Source: a virus. Taken from it: DNA of 24,710 nucleotides. Below, in pieces: positions 1 to 19,815 of the stretch; position 1 is the stretch's first letter, and each line of letters starts with the position of its first letter. A program made the position numbers and the translations under genes. Where the stretch lies: positions 1 to 24,710 of the IMG/VR virus record IMGVR_UViG_3300037104_000121; one strand, written 5' to 3'. The notes under the pieces were generated by a model. The model was not told where the DNA came from, did no database searches, and saw nothing but the letters and a program-made list of their open reading frames with translations.

Positions 1-1795
1 ATGGACATGTAAGACCGTTTTCTTCGGGAGGCATTTGATTATCATACTGACGTTGTGCTCGATCAAAATCTGCTCCAAGTCCTGACGCTTCTTGAATTGT
101 ATTTCGCTTCTTGTTTCGAATAGAACCCTTAAGCATATACTTCAAGCTTTTGGTAATGCTCTCGTACAGCTTATCAGCCTTTCGCTTCATGTCTTGTTTT
201 CCAACGGGGGTTAAAGTATATCCAAGTGCTGCTGAGCCAGCGACACCTGCTTTACTTCCACCTTCACCAGCGAAGGCACCGGGAATTAAATATCCCGGGG
301 TTCCCTCAGAACTTCCACCGCCACCAACGCTCGTGGTCATTTCTTCGAGTGGCGTTTCCTTCTTTCGAAATGCATTTGGCCCCGTTACCGGACCTGCGGC
401 GGCGGCGACACTTTGCTCTTGCTCAATGGATGGTTCTTCGCCGGGTGGAGTTTCCTCTACTGGCTTCCATTTTCTATCCTGAACATCTGCCTCGGGATTA
501 AAATAGAACCACCGTCCTTTCATATTGGCAAAGACACGAGAACTCTGAACGTGCTTGGATTTTTGAACCAAATACACAGTAGAATCCGGTCGGCGTTTCA
601 CGTCACGAATTCTCCACGCATATTGGCCTTTGCCAATCTCTTGTGGATCTTTCCATAACTTATTCGCCATAGCTTCAATCCACTTATCAATGTGTTGGCT
701 ATTATCCCTATTATTAGATGGTTGTTCGGCACTTGGCTCCCAATCCATCTGGGAATGCCCCGGAGCCTCCGGTTTAGAACGAGCATTCCCATTCTTGAAA
801 TCTTGGTCCTTTGGCTTTGATTCCGTTTTTTTCGCCTTTGATTTCGATTTGGCCTTTTCCACTTCATGAACAATGCCCGAAACAATATGCTCCATTAAAG
901 CTTGCAGATTGGCCTTACTAATCTTTCCTTCTTCCAACGGCTGAACTGCCCCGCTTTTAAGAAAAGCAATAAGCTTCTCTTTCTGTTCTGGAGGGAGAGT
1001 CTTGGCTCGTTGATAAATGTCGAGAATTTCATCCGCATCCAAACGAATGGGGTTTTGCTTACTTAACTTAAGATTGGGGTTAACCTTGGCTTTTTTGTAA
1101 AGTGTCTTTATGATAAGGTCAGCCTCATCGCCATTTTGTTTCGGCTCACCCTTGGACAATCGTGCTAGTGGAGGGCTTCCCATTCCCACTGGTTCCTTGG
1201 GTTCGACATGACCAGTTCCTGGCTCTCCACCTGGAACGGCGGTATCCATTGATGCACTCTGACCACCAGCATCTTGTGGAAACTCACCCTTAAGCATTTT
1301 CTGAATGTCATCTTTGGAGAATGGGGGAGCATTCTCGTCATCGGCCATAGCCAATCCACCACCATCTTCAGGATCTTGCTCACCGGGTTGAATGTTATCG
1401 CCAGCCGTTTCGTTTTGGCCCAAATCTTGTCCCGTAAGCTTTCCGTAAACGATGAAAAACGCATTGGCCTTTCCCATTGGATATTCGGTGTCGGCAGAAA
1501 CCCACTTCTGAATACTATCTGGTGGAAGAGCACGGGCGAGGGTATCCTTAAATATCCAAATGGCGATACCATTTGGAAGCAGAAACATCTTTTGGCCTTC
1601 ACCAAGTTTGTATCCGTTTAGGGCATCGTCCCATTCGTATCCACCGCCTGTAATCAGGGGTTCAAACCCCGCAGGGGCTTTAATGAAGTGCTCGTTACTT
1701 TGGAGAACCTTCTGGACCTTCGGGTCCATTTTGGAAATTGGCAAGATTCCAAATCGCTTTATCAGCCGCTTAAGTAGATTAAGATCGATTATCAT
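1..1795 (-). CDS. Partial low-complexity phage protein, probably head-related (C-terminus beyond window)
   Basis: The minus-strand frame is open from an ATG at 1795 to the left edge, giving about 598 residues without a stop. The start is supported by AAAAGGA 8 nt upstream, which lies inside the 3' end of the preceding endonuclease gene; the two genes overlap by 17 bp. Residues 1-110 look globular (GYEWDDALNGYKLGEG, then a segment rich in aromatic residues). Residues 120-330 are acidic, polar and Lys/Pro/Gly-rich. Residues near 350-420 form a second compact Trp/Arg-rich block. A Gly-rich stretch near residue 490 leads into TPGYLIPGAFAGEGG and then a Lys-rich helix. I do not recognise the family. 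Its place after terminase, portal and the 292-aa protein fits a head assembly, scaffold or prohead component, which is inference from gene order only. Confidence 0.7.
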   Translation of the reverse strand, partial: MIIDLNLLKRLIKRFGILPISKMDPKVQKVLQSNEHFIKAPAGFEPLITGGGYEWDDALNGYKLGEGQKMFLLPNGIAIWIFKDTLARALPPDSIQKWVSADTEYPMGKANAFFIVYGKLTGQDLGQNETAGDNIQPGEQDPEDGGGLAMADDENAPPFSKDDIQKMLKGEFPQDAGGQSASMDTAVPGGEPGTGHVEPKEPVGMGSPPLARLSKGEPKQNGDEADLIIKTLYKKAKVNPNLKLSKQNPIRLDADEILDIYQRAKTLPPEQKEKLIAFLKSGAVQPLEEGKISKANLQALMEHIVSGIVHEVEKAKSKSKAKKTESKPKDQDFKNGNARSKPEAPGHSQMDWEPSAEQPSNNRDNSQHIDKWIEAMANKLWKDPQEIGKGQYAWRIRDVKRRPDSTVYLVQKSKHVQSSRVFANMKGRWFYFNPEADVQDRKWKPVEETPPGEEPSIEQEQSVAAAAGPVTGPNAFRKKETPLEEMTTSVGGGGSSEGTPGYLIPGAFAGEGGSKAGVAGSAALGYTLTPVGKQDMKRKADKLYESITKSLKYMLKGSIRNKKRNTIQEASGLGADFDRAQRQYDNQMPPEENGLTCP

Positions 1796-2510
1796 TGTGC
1801 TGTCCTTTTAATTGTTTCTTCAATGTGTTAAGAGTAAAATCAGTACTCGTAATGGCATCATACAAACGTTTCCTATGCTCGTCATATCTCAGAAATAATG
1901 ATGGATTTATTCTCTCAACAATTTTTTGTTGTCTAATGCAATCTCTCAGCTTTAGATTGTTGCCCAAATCGTAGTGATGTTTCTCATCATATTCTACCAC
2001 TATGTTTCTATCGGAGTCATAACCATCTACAGCATATCCCGCAATCCATTTTTCTTTTCCGTTTTGAGCGTGACGAAAATTGCTTCCGCATTCCCGATTA
2101 AGTTCATCAATAAAATCACAGGCAGATGTATTGAAGTTAGTCCCTCCAAATTTTGACTCAATTTGCTTCAATCTTATTACCCTTCGCTTTTCTCTAGTTT
2201 CCTCTGATACGGGGAGTGATTTAGGAATCCCTGTTAGGGTTTTGGAAATTCTCTTCCGTGTCTCAAGCGATGGGTGAATACCTTTATGGGAGAGAGACAT
2301 TTTGACTTTGATTTCGGGCGGGATAGTCCTTCCATACCAAAAGCAACCTTTCCCACTGAGAGTATTGTGCCGTTTCTCATTACTCTCGTCTGATTGATTC
2401 TTACCACACCAATATTTGGCGTGGTGTTCTCTAATCTTCAACTTGGTCGCTTCGGAATGTTTATATCCCGCCTTTCTCCCCGGTCGTTTTTTGATAGAAA
2501 AATCATTCAT
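1779..2510 (-). CDS. Free-standing homing endonuclease: NUMOD3 repeats plus Vsr-like nuclease domain
   Basis: The 243-aa protein has an N-terminal half with several NUMOD3-like DNA-binding motifs (KHSEATKLKIREHH near residue 17, HPSLETRKRISKTLTG near 98, VSEETREKRR near 119). The C-terminal half contains GYAVDGYDSDRNIVVEYDEK at about 164-183, followed by HHYD and a later RYDEHRKRL. An acidic strand, then D/E-x-x-H, then a conserved RYD-RK tail resembles the Vsr-like/PD-(D/E)XK fold of phage homing enzymes; the fold call is inference. It shares this domain with the nuclease gene at 10752. The ATG directly abuts the stop of the 292-aa gene (TAA then ATG). Its 3' end carries the ribosome-binding site and start of the next gene, so the insertion leaves both neighbours intact. 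It probably cleaves phage alleles lacking it. Confidence 0.8.
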   Translation of the reverse strand: MNDFSIKKRPGRKAGYKHSEATKLKIREHHAKYWCGKNQSDESNEKRHNTLSGKGCFWYGRTIPPEIKVKMSLSHKGIHPSLETRKRISKTLTGIPKSLPVSEETREKRRVIRLKQIESKFGGTNFNTSACDFIDELNRECGSNFRHAQNGKEKWIAGYAVDGYDSDRNIVVEYDEKHHYDLGNNLKLRDCIRQQKIVERINPSLFLRYDEHRKRLYDAITSTDFTLNTLKKQLKGQHNDNRS

Positions 2511-10751: not shown

Positions 10752-11654
10752 TTAGAAATATCGTATCAATGTTTTTCTGTATGCATCATATCTCCAGAAT
10801 TCACACCCCAAATACGCCTTGATTTGTTTCATCCTTACCCAATCTTTTGCCATGAGACGCCCGTGGCGATAATGGCGGGGTTCATCGTATTCCACGACGA
10901 TGTTGTAGTATGGCTCGTAGTAGTCCACAAAATACCCGAGATGCGATACGAAATGCTGTCTGTTTCCAAACCACCCATTTTCCCTTTCAAGTTGGTCAAA
11001 GTATTGCTTTTCGCCCGCACCAACATTTACTAATCTCCCGTTGCCACCCCGATTCATTTGTAATACTTTTTGGCACATTATTACACGCATCTTTCGGCGG
11101 GATTCTTCCGTATGTCGTTTTCCATAAAATGGAGCAAGTTCGTCATACCGATGTACGCCATACATGGGGTTTCCCTTCTCTGTTATTTTTTGCTTGTGGG
11201 CGTCTGTATGCTTGAATCCGATGTGAGAGACAGACATCCTATTGCGGATTTCCTCGGAAGGATGTCGCCCCTTGTTTTTACAACTATTGCAACACTTGTT
11301 TCTTTTGATTGACGCATTGAATATTTCTCGGGAAGTATATGCCATCTCTCGCCTACAAATCGGGCATAGTTTAGTATATTTATCTGCGATGGGATAGGAT
11401 ATGTGAGCACAAACAGCACATTTAGAATTGGACTTGACTGCGAGTTTCCAGTGGTCTTTCCGAGAATAAATCTGTAGTTGACCACAATCGGGGCATTGTC
11501 TTTTCCATCCTCCCTCGGGAACTGGAAGTTTTTTCTTTCTTGGAGCACATTGGTAGCAGACGCAATTTCTCCTGACGGAATTGTTTAGACCTACCTTTGA
11601 CGTATAGACCAATTCCCTATTACATTTGGGGCATCTTTTTGCCCACTTTGGCAT
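10752..11654 (-). CDS. Homing endonuclease: zinc-finger repeats, NUMOD3 motifs and Vsr-like nuclease domain
   Basis: The frame is open to an ATG at 11744 (330 aa), but the first 30 residues have Thr/Ser/Asn-rich composition and read across a different, better-supported ORF. The ATG at 11654 (MPKWAKRCPKCNRELVYTSK, 300 aa) is therefore preferred. Numbered from 11744, three tandem zinc-finger units follow, each CxxC, about 20 residues, then a second Cys pair (C38-C41/C63-C66, C84-C87/C109-C112, C127-C130/C152-C155). Two or three NUMOD3-like segments follow (RHPSEEIRNRMSVSHIG, RHTEESRRKMRVIM). The C-terminal nuclease has GYFVDYYEPYYNIVVEYDE, RHYRHG, and RYDAYRKTLIRYF. The last domain matches that of the gene at 1779-2510. 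It lies between a virion gene and the Mre11-Rad50 gene. Confidence 0.75.
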   Translation of the reverse strand: MPKWAKRCPKCNRELVYTSKVGLNNSVRRNCVCYQCAPRKKKLPVPEGGWKRQCPDCGQLQIYSRKDHWKLAVKSNSKCAVCAHISYPIADKYTKLCPICRREMAYTSREIFNASIKRNKCCNSCKNKGRHPSEEIRNRMSVSHIGFKHTDAHKQKITEKGNPMYGVHRYDELAPFYGKRHTEESRRKMRVIMCQKVLQMNRGGNGRLVNVGAGEKQYFDQLERENGWFGNRQHFVSHLGYFVDYYEPYYNIVVEYDEPRHYRHGRLMAKDWVRMKQIKAYLGCEFWRYDAYRKTLIRYF

Positions 11655-11775
11655 AGTAATTCCGCATTCTCTCTCGGTTGATGTGGTATTTGTTTCTGTA
11701 GTAATACTCCCGTCTCCATCTACGTTTTGCTTCAAGTTGCTCATTTTCAGTTTCGTATTTTTGATGTCGTCCCAT
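11620..11775 (-). CDS. 51-codon ORF, probable out-of-frame N-terminal part of the adjacent endonuclease
   Basis: The ATG at 11775 is preceded by AGAAAGGAGTTCTCA, the best ribosome-binding site of this region. The product begins MGRHQKYETENEQLEAKRRW and continues REYYYRNKYHINRERMRNYY before a stop at 11620. Basic, Tyr/Asn/Arg-rich helices of this type are often found at the N-terminus of phage homing endonucleases. It overlaps the zinc-finger ORF by 35 bp. A +1 shift in the overlap would join the two into one reading frame. It may be a truncated leader coupled to the internal ATG at 11654, or the result of an indel. Confidence 0.55.
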   Translation of the reverse strand: MGRHQKYETENEQLEAKRRWRREYYYRNKYHINRERMRNYYAKVGKKMPQM

Positions 11776-16097: not shown

Positions 16098-16103
16098 GTC
16101 AGA

Positions 16104-16132
16104 AGTTTACCACTTTCTAAACAGAAACTCAA
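16104..16132 (-). promoter_or_regulatory. Possible sigma70-type promoter before primase
   Basis: On the minus strand TTGAGT is followed after 17 nt by TAAACT with a TG one base upstream (extended -10). Only 6 nt separate it from the primase ATG, so transcripts would be nearly leaderless. Confidence 0.3.
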
Positions 16133-16164
16133 CTTTTTATAAAACTTCATGAGTATGTATAGGA

Positions 16165-16362
16165 GTGAAGACATCTGGAATCTACAAAATCGTCAACAAA
16201 ATCAATGGGAAGTACTACGTCGGAAGTAGCAAAAACATTCCTGTTAGATGGTCTGATCATAAAGAGACACTCAACAAATCATCCCATTATAATGTCCATT
16301 TACAACGGTCATGGAAAAAATATGGCAACCACAATTTCGAATTTGTTATTGTGAATGCTCCC
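16165..16362 (+). pseudogene. GIY-YIG homing endonuclease, 5' fragment interrupted by the tnpB element
   Basis: The plus-strand ORF starts at a GTG (KTSGIYKIVNKINGKYYVGS). It holds the catalytic GIY-x10-YVG signature, the Arg in IPVRW, and RSWKKYGNHNFEFVIV, which form the first two thirds of a GIY-YIG domain. After codon 66 the reading frame enters the inserted element and stops at 16404. The missing catalytic Glu and DNA-binding half resume at 17618 in a compatible frame. Joining codon 66 to base 17618 restores a 243-aa enzyme. An in-frame TGA at 16150 excludes an upstream start, and the only ribosome-binding-like AGGAG touches the GTG, so initiation may also be weak. Confidence 0.8.
16356..16362 (+). 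repeat. Direct repeat TGCTCCC, left copy
   Basis: These seven bases flank the tnpB element on this side and recur at 17611-17617. One copy belongs to the ancestral endonuclease gene (codons Asn-Ala-Pro). IS200/IS605 elements make no target duplication, so the repeat likely reflects matching cleavage sites at target and element end. Confidence 0.7.
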
Positions 16363-16520
16363 ACGACCCTAAAGGGTCGGGGCTTCTATGTTAAGTTTCC
16401 TTAACAAAAGAGTCCATTCCGACTCTTAAAATGTTTCGTGCGGCGTTTAGGTCTCTCCCGATGTTAAGATTACAAATGGGGCATTTGTGCTGTCTCTCCG
16501 ACAACTCCTTCTTAACTATG
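16363..16520 (-). ncRNA. Predicted omega (right-end) guide RNA of TnpB
   Basis: In characterised TnpB systems the guide RNA overlaps the 3' end of tnpB, ends at the right end of the element, and takes its guide from flanking DNA. Here only 28 bp separate the tnpB stop from the border, and that stretch contains the right-end hairpin. The guide would begin TTCACAATAAC on the minus strand (from 16355 downwards), part of the host endonuclease gene. The 5' limit given is arbitrary. This is inferred from the family, not from transcript evidence. Confidence 0.4.
16364..16379. repeat. Right-end subterminal hairpin of the tnpB element
   Basis: CGACCC-TAAA-GGGTCG forms a perfect 6-bp stem ending one base inside the element border and 11 bp beyond the tnpB stop. 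A subterminal hairpin here is the IS200/IS605 pattern. Confidence 0.75.
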
Positions 16521-17509
16521 GTTCCGCATCCAGAGCACAACTGGCTCGTATATCGTGGGTCAACATCTACTACTTCACAGCCAGCTTCTACCGCTTTACT
16601 ATGGAGCATTTGTCTAAATGTCGTCCAACCCGAGTCCAATATGCTTCTGTTCAAACTTCGCCAGTTGTCATTCAACATCTGGCTTGGCTTAATGTTCTCT
16701 ACACAAATATGAGAGTATTCATTTACAAATCTATGACTCAACTTGTGTAGGAAATCTTTACGTTGGTTCTTCACTTTACAATGGAGTTTAACCAACGTTT
16801 TTTTGGTCTTAATCTTTCGTGGGTCATCCTTTGGTTTTGTTTTCAGTTTGGAATACTTTGCCTGTGTCTTGGAAAGTTCCTCTTGGGACTGCTTAAGGAA
16901 ATGAGGATTGGAAATGGTAGTTCCATCCGAGAGTGTAGCGAAGTCAATACATCCCATATCCATTCCGCAGGCACGCTTCCACTTACGCTTCTCAACCTTC
17001 ACTTCAACCTCACAGGAGAAAATAGCATACCAATGTGTGCCTTCACGCTTAATGGTGAGTGTCTTTACCTTGCCTTCCATTGGTCGGTGGAAGTTAATAC
17101 GAACGTCTCCAATGCGAGACATCCATAGTTTTTTCTTTCCAATCTTAAATCCTGTCTGTGGGAAGGTGAAGGAGTCATATCGGTCATACGACTTAAAGCG
17201 AGGAAATCCAGCCTTTCCACTCTTATCCTTCAATCTACGGAAGAACCCGAGATAAGCAAGGTCAAGTCGGGCAGAGACGTTTTGGAGAACTTGGGAATGG
17301 ACTGGTGTTTTCAGTTCCATATCCTTAATGAACTTACAACAATCAAAATGACTAAACGTCTTCTTGGTCTTTTTGTAATGGTCATTACGTTTCTCAAGGA
17401 GTTGGTTATAGACGTAGCGACAAGTTTCTCTCGTCTGCTCAAGACGAGTGGCAGTGCCTCCTTTGGGAGACAACCTGAACTTGTAGTTTCGTTTAACCAT
17501 CATACCCAT
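16391..17509 (-). CDS. tnpB: TnpB RNA-guided endonuclease
   Basis: The 372-aa protein belongs to the IS605 OrfB/TnpB family, the ancestor of Cas12. An N-terminal wedge/REC-like part begins NYKFRLSPKGG and includes GFPRFKSYDRYDSFTFPQ. The RuvC nuclease follows: CGMDMGCIDFATLSDG (Asp184), CVENIKPSQ (Glu271) and GRDLNAARNI (Asp353). A four-cysteine zinc ribbon lies between the last two (C325, C328, C343, C346). All catalytic and zinc residues are present, so it looks active. Three start codons are close together (17509, 17503, 17500); the family usually starts just before KRNYKFRL, favouring 17500. A sigma70-like box overlaps this site. It should cut DNA matching its guide, here the uninterrupted form of the endonuclease gene it sits in, favouring retention of the element. 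Confidence 0.93.
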   Translation of the reverse strand: MGMMVKRNYKFRLSPKGGTATRLEQTRETCRYVYNQLLEKRNDHYKKTKKTFSHFDCCKFIKDMELKTPVHSQVLQNVSARLDLAYLGFFRRLKDKSGKAGFPRFKSYDRYDSFTFPQTGFKIGKKKLWMSRIGDVRINFHRPMEGKVKTLTIKREGTHWYAIFSCEVEVKVEKRKWKRACGMDMGCIDFATLSDGTTISNPHFLKQSQEELSKTQAKYSKLKTKPKDDPRKIKTKKTLVKLHCKVKNQRKDFLHKLSHRFVNEYSHICVENIKPSQMLNDNWRSLNRSILDSGWTTFRQMLHSKAVEAGCEVVDVDPRYTSQLCSGCGTIVKKELSERQHKCPICNLNIGRDLNAARNILRVGMDSFVKET

Positions 17510-17510
17510 A

Positions 17511-17538
17511 AGTATAATGGATTTACGGAAAAAGTCAA
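17511..17538 (-). promoter_or_regulatory. Sigma70-like promoter of tnpB
   Basis: The minus strand has TTGACT, a 16-nt spacer and TATACT, close to consensus. TATACT ends one base before the first tnpB ATG, so the transcript would be almost leaderless and translation would start at 17503 or 17500. Confidence 0.45.
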
Positions 17539-17582
17539 GTTTTTCATTTTTCCTTAATACTTATTCTATGGGTCGCATTCAT

Positions 17583-17605
17583 CCCCTACCCTAAAGGGAT
17601 AGGGG
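17583..17605. repeat. Left-end subterminal hairpin of the tnpB element
   Basis: CCCCTA pairs with TAGGGG around an inner CC/GG stem, with one C-A mismatch and the same CCCTAAAGGG core as the right end. It lies 12 bp inside the border, on the tnpB 5' side. Confidence 0.7.
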
Positions 17606-17610
17606 CTTTC

Positions 17611-17617
17611 TGCTCCC
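17611..17617 (+). repeat. Direct repeat TGCTCCC, right copy
   Basis: Second copy of the seven bases at 16356-16362, at the tnpB 5' side junction. Read on the minus strand (GGGAGCA) it is the candidate target-adjacent motif for insertion and TnpB recognition. Confidence 0.7.
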
Positions 17618-18151
17618 AAAAATGTAAAGCAGTGTTCCGAAAAAAACTTATTGATTGAAGAACAAAACTTCTTAGACATCTGTAAAAATAATCCATCCGA
17701 ATCGTATAATCAAATTTATACTGCTGGGGGCGGCGGGGATTTTTCTCCCGAAACATTTGAAAAAATGAGACGCAATCATGCCGACTATTGTGGTAAGAAT
17801 AATCCAAGATATGGAATTCCAATGTCAGATGAAACAAAGCGGAAAATTGGAATTTCTAATAGTATAAACTATTCCAACCCAACTAAAACACCGATGTACG
17901 GTAAACATCATTCCCAAGAGACAAAACTAAAAATTGGGTTGGCACGAGTTGGAAAATATAGTGGTAAAAATAGCCCTTCATTTGACTCAACGCCTATCTC
18001 ACTCATAAATATAAGAACAAACGAGCGATTGACCGCAACCAAATATGACCTTATTACCACAATGAAATTTGATCGCTCGCATTTGTGGAAGCTTCTTTGT
18101 GGGAGACTGAAAACTTATCGGGGATGGGTTCCATATAACCCTTCCTCGTAA
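17618..18151 (+). pseudogene. GIY-YIG homing endonuclease, 3' fragment (catalytic Glu, NUMOD3, C-terminal HTH-like domain)
   Basis: The 177-codon open stretch continues the frame of the 5' fragment. It begins KNVKQCSEKNLLIEEQNFLD, the usual end of the GIY-YIG domain with the metal-binding Glu. NUMOD3 motifs follow (PMSDETKRKIGISNS, HHSQETKLKIGLARVG). A C-terminal segment (SLINIRTNERLTATKYDL, then LWKLLCGRLKTYRGWVP) resembles the IENR1/NUMOD1-type helical DNA-binding domain of many phage enzymes. No good start codon exists at its beginning, so alone it is not a gene. There are no frameshifts or stops inside, which points to a recent insertion. The end overlaps the convergent minus-strand gene by 37 bp. 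Confidence 0.8.
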
Positions 18152-18669: not shown

Positions 18670-19153
18670 AGCACGATACTACTATTGCATCATAGGCATC
18701 TTCCATTCTTTTATCTGGAACTCCGTTCCTATTTAGCACGATCCACGGAGTCATATTATACATAGTTTCAATTTTCTGTTTTACGAAATCTTTTGGCTTT
18801 ATTCCTTTTATTCTGGACACCCCAAATAATTGTTTTCGCATTGTTACAGCATTAGCATGAACCATTGGAAGATGATAATGTTCATTGAGAATATAACAAA
18901 TAACCGCTTTATTCTTTGCCAGTTTCAATATCGTTTGTTGAGAGGTTTTTCCAAATGCAAATCCCGACAAATTTTCTTCGACGCTTATCCTTCCAAATTC
19001 TTTTCCGGCAAGACCATCTATTATGATTTGGGCTTTGTCTTTGTAATTTTCTACCTTTGATATGTCAAAATATCCAACGTCAATCAATTTTTTGTCTTCT
19101 GTTATTGCAAATCCGCATACGGTTGAAGACAGGTCTAATCCTAATGACTTCAT
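18644..19153 (-). CDS. RuvC-type Holliday junction resolvase
   Basis: From the ATG at 19153 the protein has 169 aa. The RNase H-fold acidic residues are visible: SLGLDLSSTVCGFAI (Asp7), ISVEENLSG (Glu59/60) and MEDAYDAIVVS (Asp152, Asp155). A middle segment, FGKTSQQTILKLAKNKAVI, fits the helix that contacts the junction. The frame extends 5 codons further to an ATG at 19168, but MKSLGLD is the natural family start and forms TAATG with the stop of the upstream endonuclease. A run of eight G lies 7 bases upstream and may act as ribosome-binding sequence. It probably clears branched DNA before packaging, the role T4 gives to endonuclease VII. Confidence 0.87.
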   Translation of the reverse strand: MKSLGLDLSSTVCGFAITEDKKLIDVGYFDISKVENYKDKAQIIIDGLAGKEFGRISVEENLSGFAFGKTSQQTILKLAKNKAVICYILNEHYHLPMVHANAVTMRKQLFGVSRIKGIKPKDFVKQKIETMYNMTPWIVLNRNGVPDKRMEDAYDAIVVSCYENHTDNV

Positions 19154-19815
19154 TAGATCCCCCCCCATCGTCGTAATGCTGCCGCACGCAGTTTCGCTTT
19201 GGATGCCTTGGAATGGTGCTTTCCTTTGAATGGCGATGGTTTCCCTATCTTCGCAATGCTTATTTTTCGTCTCGTTTCGTCGTCATACATTAATCCTTTA
19301 TTCCATGCAGTCTGAACTCCCACCATCCCTTTATTCCACGGCACTCGACCAATTTGCGACAAGCTTATATGTGATTTATGTTCGTCAGAAAATACCATTC
19401 CTATTCGAGCATTACTCATATTTCTCTTTGATTCTTCCGACATAATCTTACCCATATTTGATTCACTTATCTTTTTTCTACTCTCCGGTGACATCTTCCT
19501 CCCTCGCATCGGAGCGATGGAATCGAAAGACAAATTGTAACTCAATTTTGGGTTCCTACGACATTCATTTAAATATTTTTGTTCGACCGATTCGAGTTCT
19601 TTTTCTTCTGGTAGTATCTCCACAATTTCAAATCGAAATGCCAAACATCCATATTTATTCCACGCCGCTTGGAGATACGGATTGGCATGATGATTATTGT
19701 TCAATTTACATTTGTGAATATACCAACGATGAGAAATGTCGGATGAACTTCCAACATAATATTTTCCGGTCAGATTATTTGTTATTTTGTAAATACCCGC
19801 AATTTTGATGTTCAT
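19153..19815 (-). CDS. GIY-YIG homing endonuclease with NUMOD3 repeats (Seg-like)
   Basis: The 220-aa protein has an N-terminal GIY-YIG nuclease (GIY at 7-9, YVG at 21-23, Arg31 in SHRW, YLQAAWNKYG, and the Glu in ESVEQKYL). About five NUMOD3 DNA-binding motifs follow (KMSPESRKKISESNMG, MSEESKRNMSNARIG, FSDEHKSHISLSQIG, DDETRRKISIAKIG, HHSKASKAKLRAAA). It ends RRWGGI at an eight-G run, and its TAA shares a base with the resolvase ATG. It begins 1 nt after the stop of the RHH-like gene. It looks complete and active. It is related to, but clearly distinct from, the interrupted plus-strand enzyme. Confidence 0.9.
   Translation of the reverse strand: MNIKIAGIYKITNNLTGKYYVGSSSDISHRWYIHKCKLNNNHHANPYLQAAWNKYGCLAFRFEIVEILPEEKELESVEQKYLNECRRNPKLSYNLSFDSIAPMRGRKMSPESRKKISESNMGKIMSEESKRNMSNARIGMVFSDEHKSHISLSQIGRVPWNKGMVGVQTAWNKGLMYDDETRRKISIAKIGKPSPFKGKHHSKASKAKLRAAALRRWGGI

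What the first reader, a model, noticed from the sequence alone, without database searches (positions are those of the whole stretch)
16165..18151. tnpB element nested in a GIY-YIG homing endonuclease gene, with an exactly reconstructable empty site
The plus strand carries two halves of one homing endonuclease, 16165-16362 and 17618-18151, separated by 1255 bp that hold tnpB on the opposite strand. The junctions share TGCTCCC. Deleting one repeat copy plus the element joins codon 66 to AAA AAT GTA and gives an uninterrupted 243-aa protein with GIY, YVG, the catalytic Glu, NUMOD3 motifs and a C-terminal DNA-binding domain. There are no other disruptions. One selfish nuclease has landed inside another, inside a phage, and the host nuclease is otherwise pristine. 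That points to recent movement, or to a functional combination in which TnpB takes over homing.
Basis: partly seen in the sequence, partly recalled or inferred. Interest (0 to 1): 0.88.

Follow-up and report, generated by a model that had tools for sequence, protein, structure and literature searches.

The report
TnpB insertion sequence inside homing endonuclease
In a T4-like phage, a small transposon carrying the RNA-guided nuclease TnpB has jumped into, and almost certainly broken, another selfish nuclease gene; the pieces and the mechanism are known kinds, but the nesting is clean, recent and readable to the base.

Summary
The nesting is real. Window 16165-16350 and 17624-18151 (+) are two halves of one GIY-YIG homing endonuclease. 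The 1273 bp between them is a tnpB-only IS200/IS605 element of IS608 type, with tnpB on the minus strand. TGCTCCC is a subterminal motif inside the element. All 22 distinct copies fetched end in GCATTCAC, and all 7 well-preserved left ends start directly after TTAC. The true empty site is ATT|GTA and gives 237 aa, not 243. Four phage contigs (L031-L034) carry the uninterrupted orthologue in the same place beside T5orf172, and align with the 237-aa protein without a gap across the junction. The element is 99.4% identical to a copy in an unrelated phage, so it moved recently. TnpB keeps its RuvC triad, and the right end keeps a covarying guide-RNA scaffold whose guide matches the empty allele. 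The likely mechanism is TnpA-mediated insertion in trans, loss of the homing endonuclease, and TnpB cutting only the identical empty allele. A designed partnership of the two nucleases is not supported: no fetched relative carries the guide target, homing genes fill 13% of the window, and most sister copies do not interrupt a homing gene.

The parts
16165..16350 (+). 5' part of the GIY-YIG homing endonuclease (codons 1-62; GTG start; GIY, YVG, Arg28)
   Evidence: Pfam PF01541 E 2.4e-08; aligned with intact L031 orthologue
16351..17623 (-). IS608-like tnpB-only insertion element, 1273 bp, no tnpA
   Evidence: ends fixed by comparison with 22 distinct right ends and 7 left ends; no Y1 transposase in the record
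16351..16354 (-). right cleavage site TCAC (CR), last bases of the element
   Evidence: invariant in all copies; flank diverges right after it
16360..16382 (-). right-end hairpin CCCCGACCC-TTTA-GGGTCGTGGG, preceded by putative right guide tetranucleotide GAAG (16383-16386)
   Evidence: compensatory changes in relatives, 0/500 shuffles reach the covariation score
16360..16427 (-). predicted omega/reRNA scaffold: three hairpins (16408-16427, 16389-16406, 16360-16382); the first overlaps the 3' end of tnpB
   Evidence: RNAalifold and pair counts with compensatory changes; fold z -2.3; no Rfam match
16331..16350 (-). predicted guide (20 nt AATAACAAATTCGAAATTGT), copied from the endonuclease gene
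   Evidence: position directly 3' of the element's right end, as in characterised TnpB systems (PMC8612924); sequence
16391..17509 (-). tnpB, 372 aa, RNA-guided nuclease with RuvC D/E/D residues and zinc-ribbon cysteines kept
   Evidence: Pfam PF01385, PF07282, PF12323; alignment to ISDra2 TnpB 8h1j, E 2.7e-49
17583..17605 (-). left-end hairpin CCCCTATCCCTTTAGGGTAGGGG, preceded by left guide tetranucleotide AAAG (17606-17609)
   Evidence: sequence, inverted repeat; AAAG equals GL of IS608 (PMC5934647)
17624..17627 (-). TTAC target / TAM directly 5' of the left end
   Evidence: present at 7 of 7 well-preserved left ends
17624..18151 (+). 3' part of the GIY-YIG homing endonuclease (codons 63-237 plus stop; Glu of the EEQ motif, NUMOD3 motifs)
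   Evidence: Pfam PF07460 E 7.9e-09; alignment with L031
18115..18429 (-). T5orf172-domain gene, tail-to-tail neighbour that marks the shared locus
   Evidence: PF10544 E 1.6e-11; 73% identical in L031-L034 in the same arrangement

Best explanation
A non-autonomous (tnpB-only) IS608-like element inserted, with a Y1 transposase supplied in trans, 3' of a TTAC on the minus strand of a free-standing GIY-YIG homing endonuclease gene, without target duplication. It split the catalytic domain between residues 62 and 63 and so inactivated the gene. TnpB with the guide RNA made from the right end is expected to recognise only the exact empty allele (TTAC followed by the guide) in sister or co-infecting phage genomes and to cut it, so that repair copies the element back. 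Shown here: the anatomy, the exact ends, the intact orthologue at the same locus, recent sharing between phages, and conserved catalytic residues and RNA structure. Inferred from characterised IS200/IS605 systems: TnpA in trans, guide use, and cutting. Inferred from GIY-YIG biochemistry: loss of the endonuclease.
For: Ends: 22 distinct right ends finish in GCATTCAC and 7 of 7 well-preserved left ends follow TTAC. TTAC and AAAG are the target and left guide of IS608 (PMC5934647). Here GAAG goes with TCAC where IS608 has GAAT with TCAA, which looks like a matched change. Full tnpA-plus-tnpB relatives with the same right end exist in other phage contigs. Intact orthologue at the syntenic locus, aligning without a gap across ATT|GTA. 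Element 99.4% identical over 1272 bp to a copy in an unrelated phage's tRNA array. TnpB aligns with ISDra2 TnpB through the RuvC motifs. Right-end hairpins covary. No Rfam match in the region, so no known self-splicing intron that would restore the endonuclease.
Against: The record is a 24.7-kb metagenomic fragment and no read-level check was possible. No contig with the exact empty allele, or with flanks identical to the window's, was found. No transposase lies in the fragment, though the rest of the genome is missing. TnpB activity and guide use were not measured.
Confidence: 0.9

Rival explanations
1. Functional partnership: TnpB has taken over homing for the endonuclease locus, so the nested pair is kept by selection as an RNA-guided homing unit.
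For: TnpB and its guide-RNA scaffold look intact. The guide plus TTAC equals the empty endonuclease allele. A second TnpB relative (L014) also interrupts a phage endonuclease gene, both sides matching phrog_681.
Against: No fetched endonuclease relative has TTAC plus the guide within 5 mismatches. Homing-type genes cover 13% of the window, so a hit in one is not surprising. Only 2 of 8 resolved sites interrupt an endonuclease gene, and in L014 the host gene and tnpB are both decayed. None of 8 annotated phage TnpB neighbourhoods shows a split homing gene.
Confidence: 0.1
2. One reading: an element of 1255 bp bounded by a 7-bp TGCTCCC target repeat, leaving a 243-aa protein.
For: TGCTCCC does occur at both positions, and that join is also in frame.
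Against: The motif is inside the element in every relative; the right-hand bases up to GCATTCAC and the left-hand bases back to TTAC are conserved at unrelated sites. The 243-aa join scores lower than the 237-aa join against L031-L034 and most other relatives.
Confidence: 0.02
3. Assembly chimera in which a repeated tnpB element was wrongly placed in the endonuclease gene.
For: Metagenomic contig; nearly identical element copies exist in another phage contig.
Against: Both junctions fall exactly at the biological ends, next to a correct TTAC target, with the two halves of one gene on either side in frame; the intact gene exists at the same locus in relatives.
Confidence: 0.04
4. IStron-like element: removed at RNA level so that the endonuclease is still made.
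For: TnpB elements with group I introns exist (PMC4227781, listed).
Against: No Rfam match in the region even at E up to 1; tnpB is antisense to the endonuclease; all 1273 bp are accounted for by tnpB and the two ends.
Confidence: 0.01

Closest known systems
IS608 (IS200/IS605 family, Helicobacter pylori)
   Same: TTAC target kept at the left flank, left guide AAAG 5' of the left hairpin, subterminal hairpins in the same orientation at both ends, no target duplication, TnpB (for the IS608 features)
   Different: no tnpA in this copy; right cleavage site TCAC with guide GAAG instead of TCAA with GAAT
ISDra2 TnpB and its reRNA (Deinococcus radiodurans)
   Same: homologous TnpB over residues 6-364, RuvC D/E/D positions kept; guide RNA at the right end, target motif equal to the insertion target (PMC8612924)
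   Different: TTGAT target in ISDra2 versus TTAC here; activity here untested
Free-standing GIY-YIG homing endonucleases with NUMOD3 of T4-like phages
   Same: GIY-YIG domain, Arg and Glu motifs, NUMOD3 motifs, sits in a gap between conserved phage genes that other relatives leave empty or fill with an HNH gene
   Different: interrupted by the element; cleavage site unknown
TnpB gene drive in plasmids (PMC11870625)
   Same: proposed outcome: guided cutting of element-free copies
   Different: phage co-infection instead of plasmid copies; not tested here

Membership tests
IS200/IS605 family, IS608-like | insertion directly 3' of a short target (TTAC) with no target duplication | tested here: met
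   7 of 7 well-preserved left ends follow TTAC; intact orthologue aligns across the junction with no duplicated bases
IS200/IS605 family, IS608-like | subterminal imperfect hairpins at both ends with a guide tetranucleotide at their 5' foot | tested here: met
   hairpins at 16360-16382 and 17583-17605, AAAG/GAAG at the foot; IS608 comparison from PMC5934647
IS200/IS605 family, IS608-like | Y1 HUH transposase TnpA (required for an autonomous member; tnpB-only derivatives are a recognised class) | tested here: not met
   none in the 24.7-kb record; found in relatives G003, G004, G009, G015 and G016. Filed only as a non-autonomous, tnpB-only derivative
TnpB RNA-guided nuclease | RuvC D/E/D residues, zinc ribbon and HTH domain | tested here: met
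   Pfam hits and alignment to 8h1j
TnpB RNA-guided nuclease | structured guide RNA at the right end, running into the flank | tested here: met
   covarying hairpins up to the end of the element; transcription itself not testable
TnpB RNA-guided nuclease | TAM-dependent guided DNA cleavage | not testable with these tools
   needs biochemistry
GIY-YIG homing endonuclease | GIY-YIG domain with Arg and Glu, NUMOD3, mobile position between conserved genes | tested here: met
GIY-YIG homing endonuclease | active endonuclease | not testable with these tools
   the gene is split in the middle of the catalytic domain, so inactivity is expected
IStron | self-splicing group I intron within the element | tested here: not met
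   no Rfam match at E up to 1

The most novel reading that the evidence does not exclude
TnpB elements of this phage-borne clade favour homing endonuclease genes and turn the locus into an RNA-guided homing unit, cutting the intact endonuclease allele in co-infecting phages, so that one selfish nuclease spreads by destroying another.
Probability: 0.12. Interest if true: 0.65.

Novelty: new member of a known kind. Interest (0 to 1): 0.37.

Why it matters
It is a clean natural case of two nuclease-based selfish elements competing for one phage site, resolved to the base: intact allele in relatives, broken allele here, and a predicted guide that matches only the broken phage's own empty allele. 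It gives a ready test of whether TnpB drives in phage co-infection. It also shows that the visible 7-bp repeat at such junctions can mislead, because only comparison of copies gives the true ends.

Tried and rejected
DNA similarity search of the region in the annotated phage collection: no match. Exact flank 22-mer in viral contigs, looking for a sibling with the empty or filled site: none. Rfam: no match. TGCTCCC as target repeat: rejected. Element-mediated RNA splicing: rejected. Enrichment in homing genes: not supported by sister sites or by 8 annotated phage neighbourhoods. dN/dS between the halves and L031 is low to moderate (N half dN 0.21; dS near saturation) but the comparison is far too old to date the insertion. 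Host genomes with the same right end exist (Methanothrix, Opitutaceae, Phycisphaerae and others) but their TnpB are 42% identical at most, so they do not identify the phage's host. Literature: no paper found describing a TnpB element inside a phage homing endonuclease gene, within an open-access library only. A hand-typed alignment for one hairpin carried an extra base in some rows and was discarded; replace it.

Full report
What is there. The window is a 24,710-bp IMG/VR virus record from a T4-like phage: T4-type portal and terminase, and a fused SbcC/SbcD-like recombination protein. On the plus strand, between the primase gene and a T5orf172 gene, lie two parts of one GIY-YIG homing endonuclease. 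The first part has the GIY-YIG match (E 2.4e-08), the second the NUMOD3 match (E 7.9e-09). Between them, on the minus strand, is a full-length tnpB of 372 aa.

The true ends of the element. I fetched 15 tnpB-bearing viral loci and further loci by a right-end DNA pattern. Read on the tnpB strand, all 22 distinct right ends finish in GCATTCAC (21 of them as GGAGCATTCAC) and then run into unrelated sequence. The pattern used contains this ending, so the loci it brought in agree by construction; the independent evidence is the copies found through the protein search, which show the same ending. All seven well-preserved left ends, in seven unrelated places, start directly after TTAC. So both TGCTCCC copies lie within the element. 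The element is 16351-17623, 1273 bp. The insertion target is TTAC on the minus strand (17624-17627), with no duplication. TTAC as target and AAAG as left guide are the features of IS608 (PMC5934647); here the right end has TCAC with GAAG where IS608 has TCAA with GAAT.

The empty site. Removing 16351-17623 joins ATT to GTA and gives a 237-aa protein. Against 47 homologous loci the 237-aa version scores higher in 34, lower in 12 and equal in 1; the cases that prefer the longer join are mostly distant relatives that themselves carry extra residues or gaps there. The closest relatives (L031-L034, 59% identity over residues 1-174) align without a gap across the junction, and the DNA alignment to L031 agrees (405.8 against 390.8).

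The same locus in relatives. L031-L034 carry this endonuclease uninterrupted, on the same strand, tail to tail with T5orf172 (73% identical), followed by the Zn-ribbon gene (76%), RuvC (92%) and the second GIY-YIG gene (79%). In L018, L020 and L021 the primase and T5orf172 genes are separated by only about 40 bp, and in L017, the relative closest by primase, an HNH-type endonuclease fills the gap. The gap is therefore a site that homing genes occupy in turn. The window phage has a GIY-YIG gene there, and that gene has in turn been entered by the tnpB element.

Age. The element is 99.4% identical over 1272 bp to a copy in L114/L109, a phage contig in which no other window protein tested had a match, where it sits in a tRNA array (tRNA-like genes read by eye). 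Beyond the first 26 bases the two copies differ by three substitutions. The element has moved between phages recently. With no stop or frameshift in either endonuclease half, the insertion is probably young, but it cannot be dated.

How it likely works. TnpB aligns with ISDra2 TnpB over residues 6-364 (E 2.7e-49) and keeps the three RuvC positions (GMDMG, CVENI, GRDLN) and the zinc-ribbon cysteines. The last ~70 bases of the element form three hairpins. In relatives the second and third change by compensatory pairs: for the right-end hairpin 97.8% of cells are paired and no shuffle of 500 reaches the covariation score; for the middle hairpin 100% are paired, likewise 0/500 (rows cut by eye to the hairpin, L006-type copies with a five-base loop left out); RNAalifold finds the same three on the full alignment. 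This fits the known TnpB guide-RNA scaffold that ends at the element's right end and takes its guide from the flank (PMC8612924). Here the guide is copied from the endonuclease gene, and TTAC plus guide is the empty allele. The inference is that TnpB cuts the empty allele so that the element is copied back, as proposed for ISDra2 and reported for plasmids (PMC11870625). No transposase is present in the record; relatives with the same right end in other phages do carry tnpA, so movement in trans is the likely route.

What it does to the endonuclease. The split leaves GIY, YVG and Arg28 in the first part and the Glu of EEQ and the Asn of YNQ in the second. The first part runs into element sequence and stops after 79 aa. 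No Rfam match suggests that the element can be spliced out. The endonuclease is therefore expected to be inactive.

Is the nesting more than chance? Homing-type genes make up 13% of the window, and they are dispensable, so insertions there survive. Of eight resolved sites for this clade, one is this gene, one (L014) lies in another endonuclease gene with both the gene and tnpB decayed, and the other six do not clearly interrupt a homing gene. Eight annotated phages with more distant TnpB show no split homing gene. No fetched relative has TTAC plus the guide within five mismatches. A selected partnership is possible but unsupported.

Verdict. It is a new member of a known kind: an IS608-like tnpB-only insertion in a phage homing endonuclease gene. 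I found no paper describing such a nesting, within an open-access library.

Noticed in passing
L016:3950-4180 (303-kb phage contig, record G005); also L106, L099 and L018:4790-4990: Mini-elements of about 200-250 bp that keep a left hairpin, the guide-RNA scaffold and the right end with its own flank, but have lost most of tnpB; G005 also encodes full TnpB proteins (11 TNB-domain matches). They could be guide-only elements served by TnpB in trans.
   Followed up: partly
L114:7484-7520 and L114:9170-9200: The left ~26 bp of the 99.4% identical sister element differ from the window and resemble a second phage sequence 1.7 kb away in the same tRNA array; the left end looks recombined and lacks TTAC.
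   Followed up: partly
L014:1-2100: A related element sits inside a different phage endonuclease gene (both sides match phrog_681), with about 10 residues overlapping across the site and frameshifts in tnpB.
   Followed up: partly
window 16098-18114 and L017:919-1569: The primase/T5orf172 gap is a homing-gene hotspot: GIY-YIG in the window and L031-L034, HNH in L017, empty in L018, L020 and L021.
   Followed up: yes
window 1779-2510, 10752-11744, 19153-19815: Three further NUMOD3-bearing homing-type genes in the same 24.7 kb; the one at 19153-19815 is a second, intact GIY-YIG gene between RuvC and a small gene.
   Followed up: no
L005:1450-2220: In a 354-kb phage contig a GIY-YIG relative (32% identical to the joined protein) lies about 1.7 kb from a tnpB element of the same clade, not nested.
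   Followed up: no
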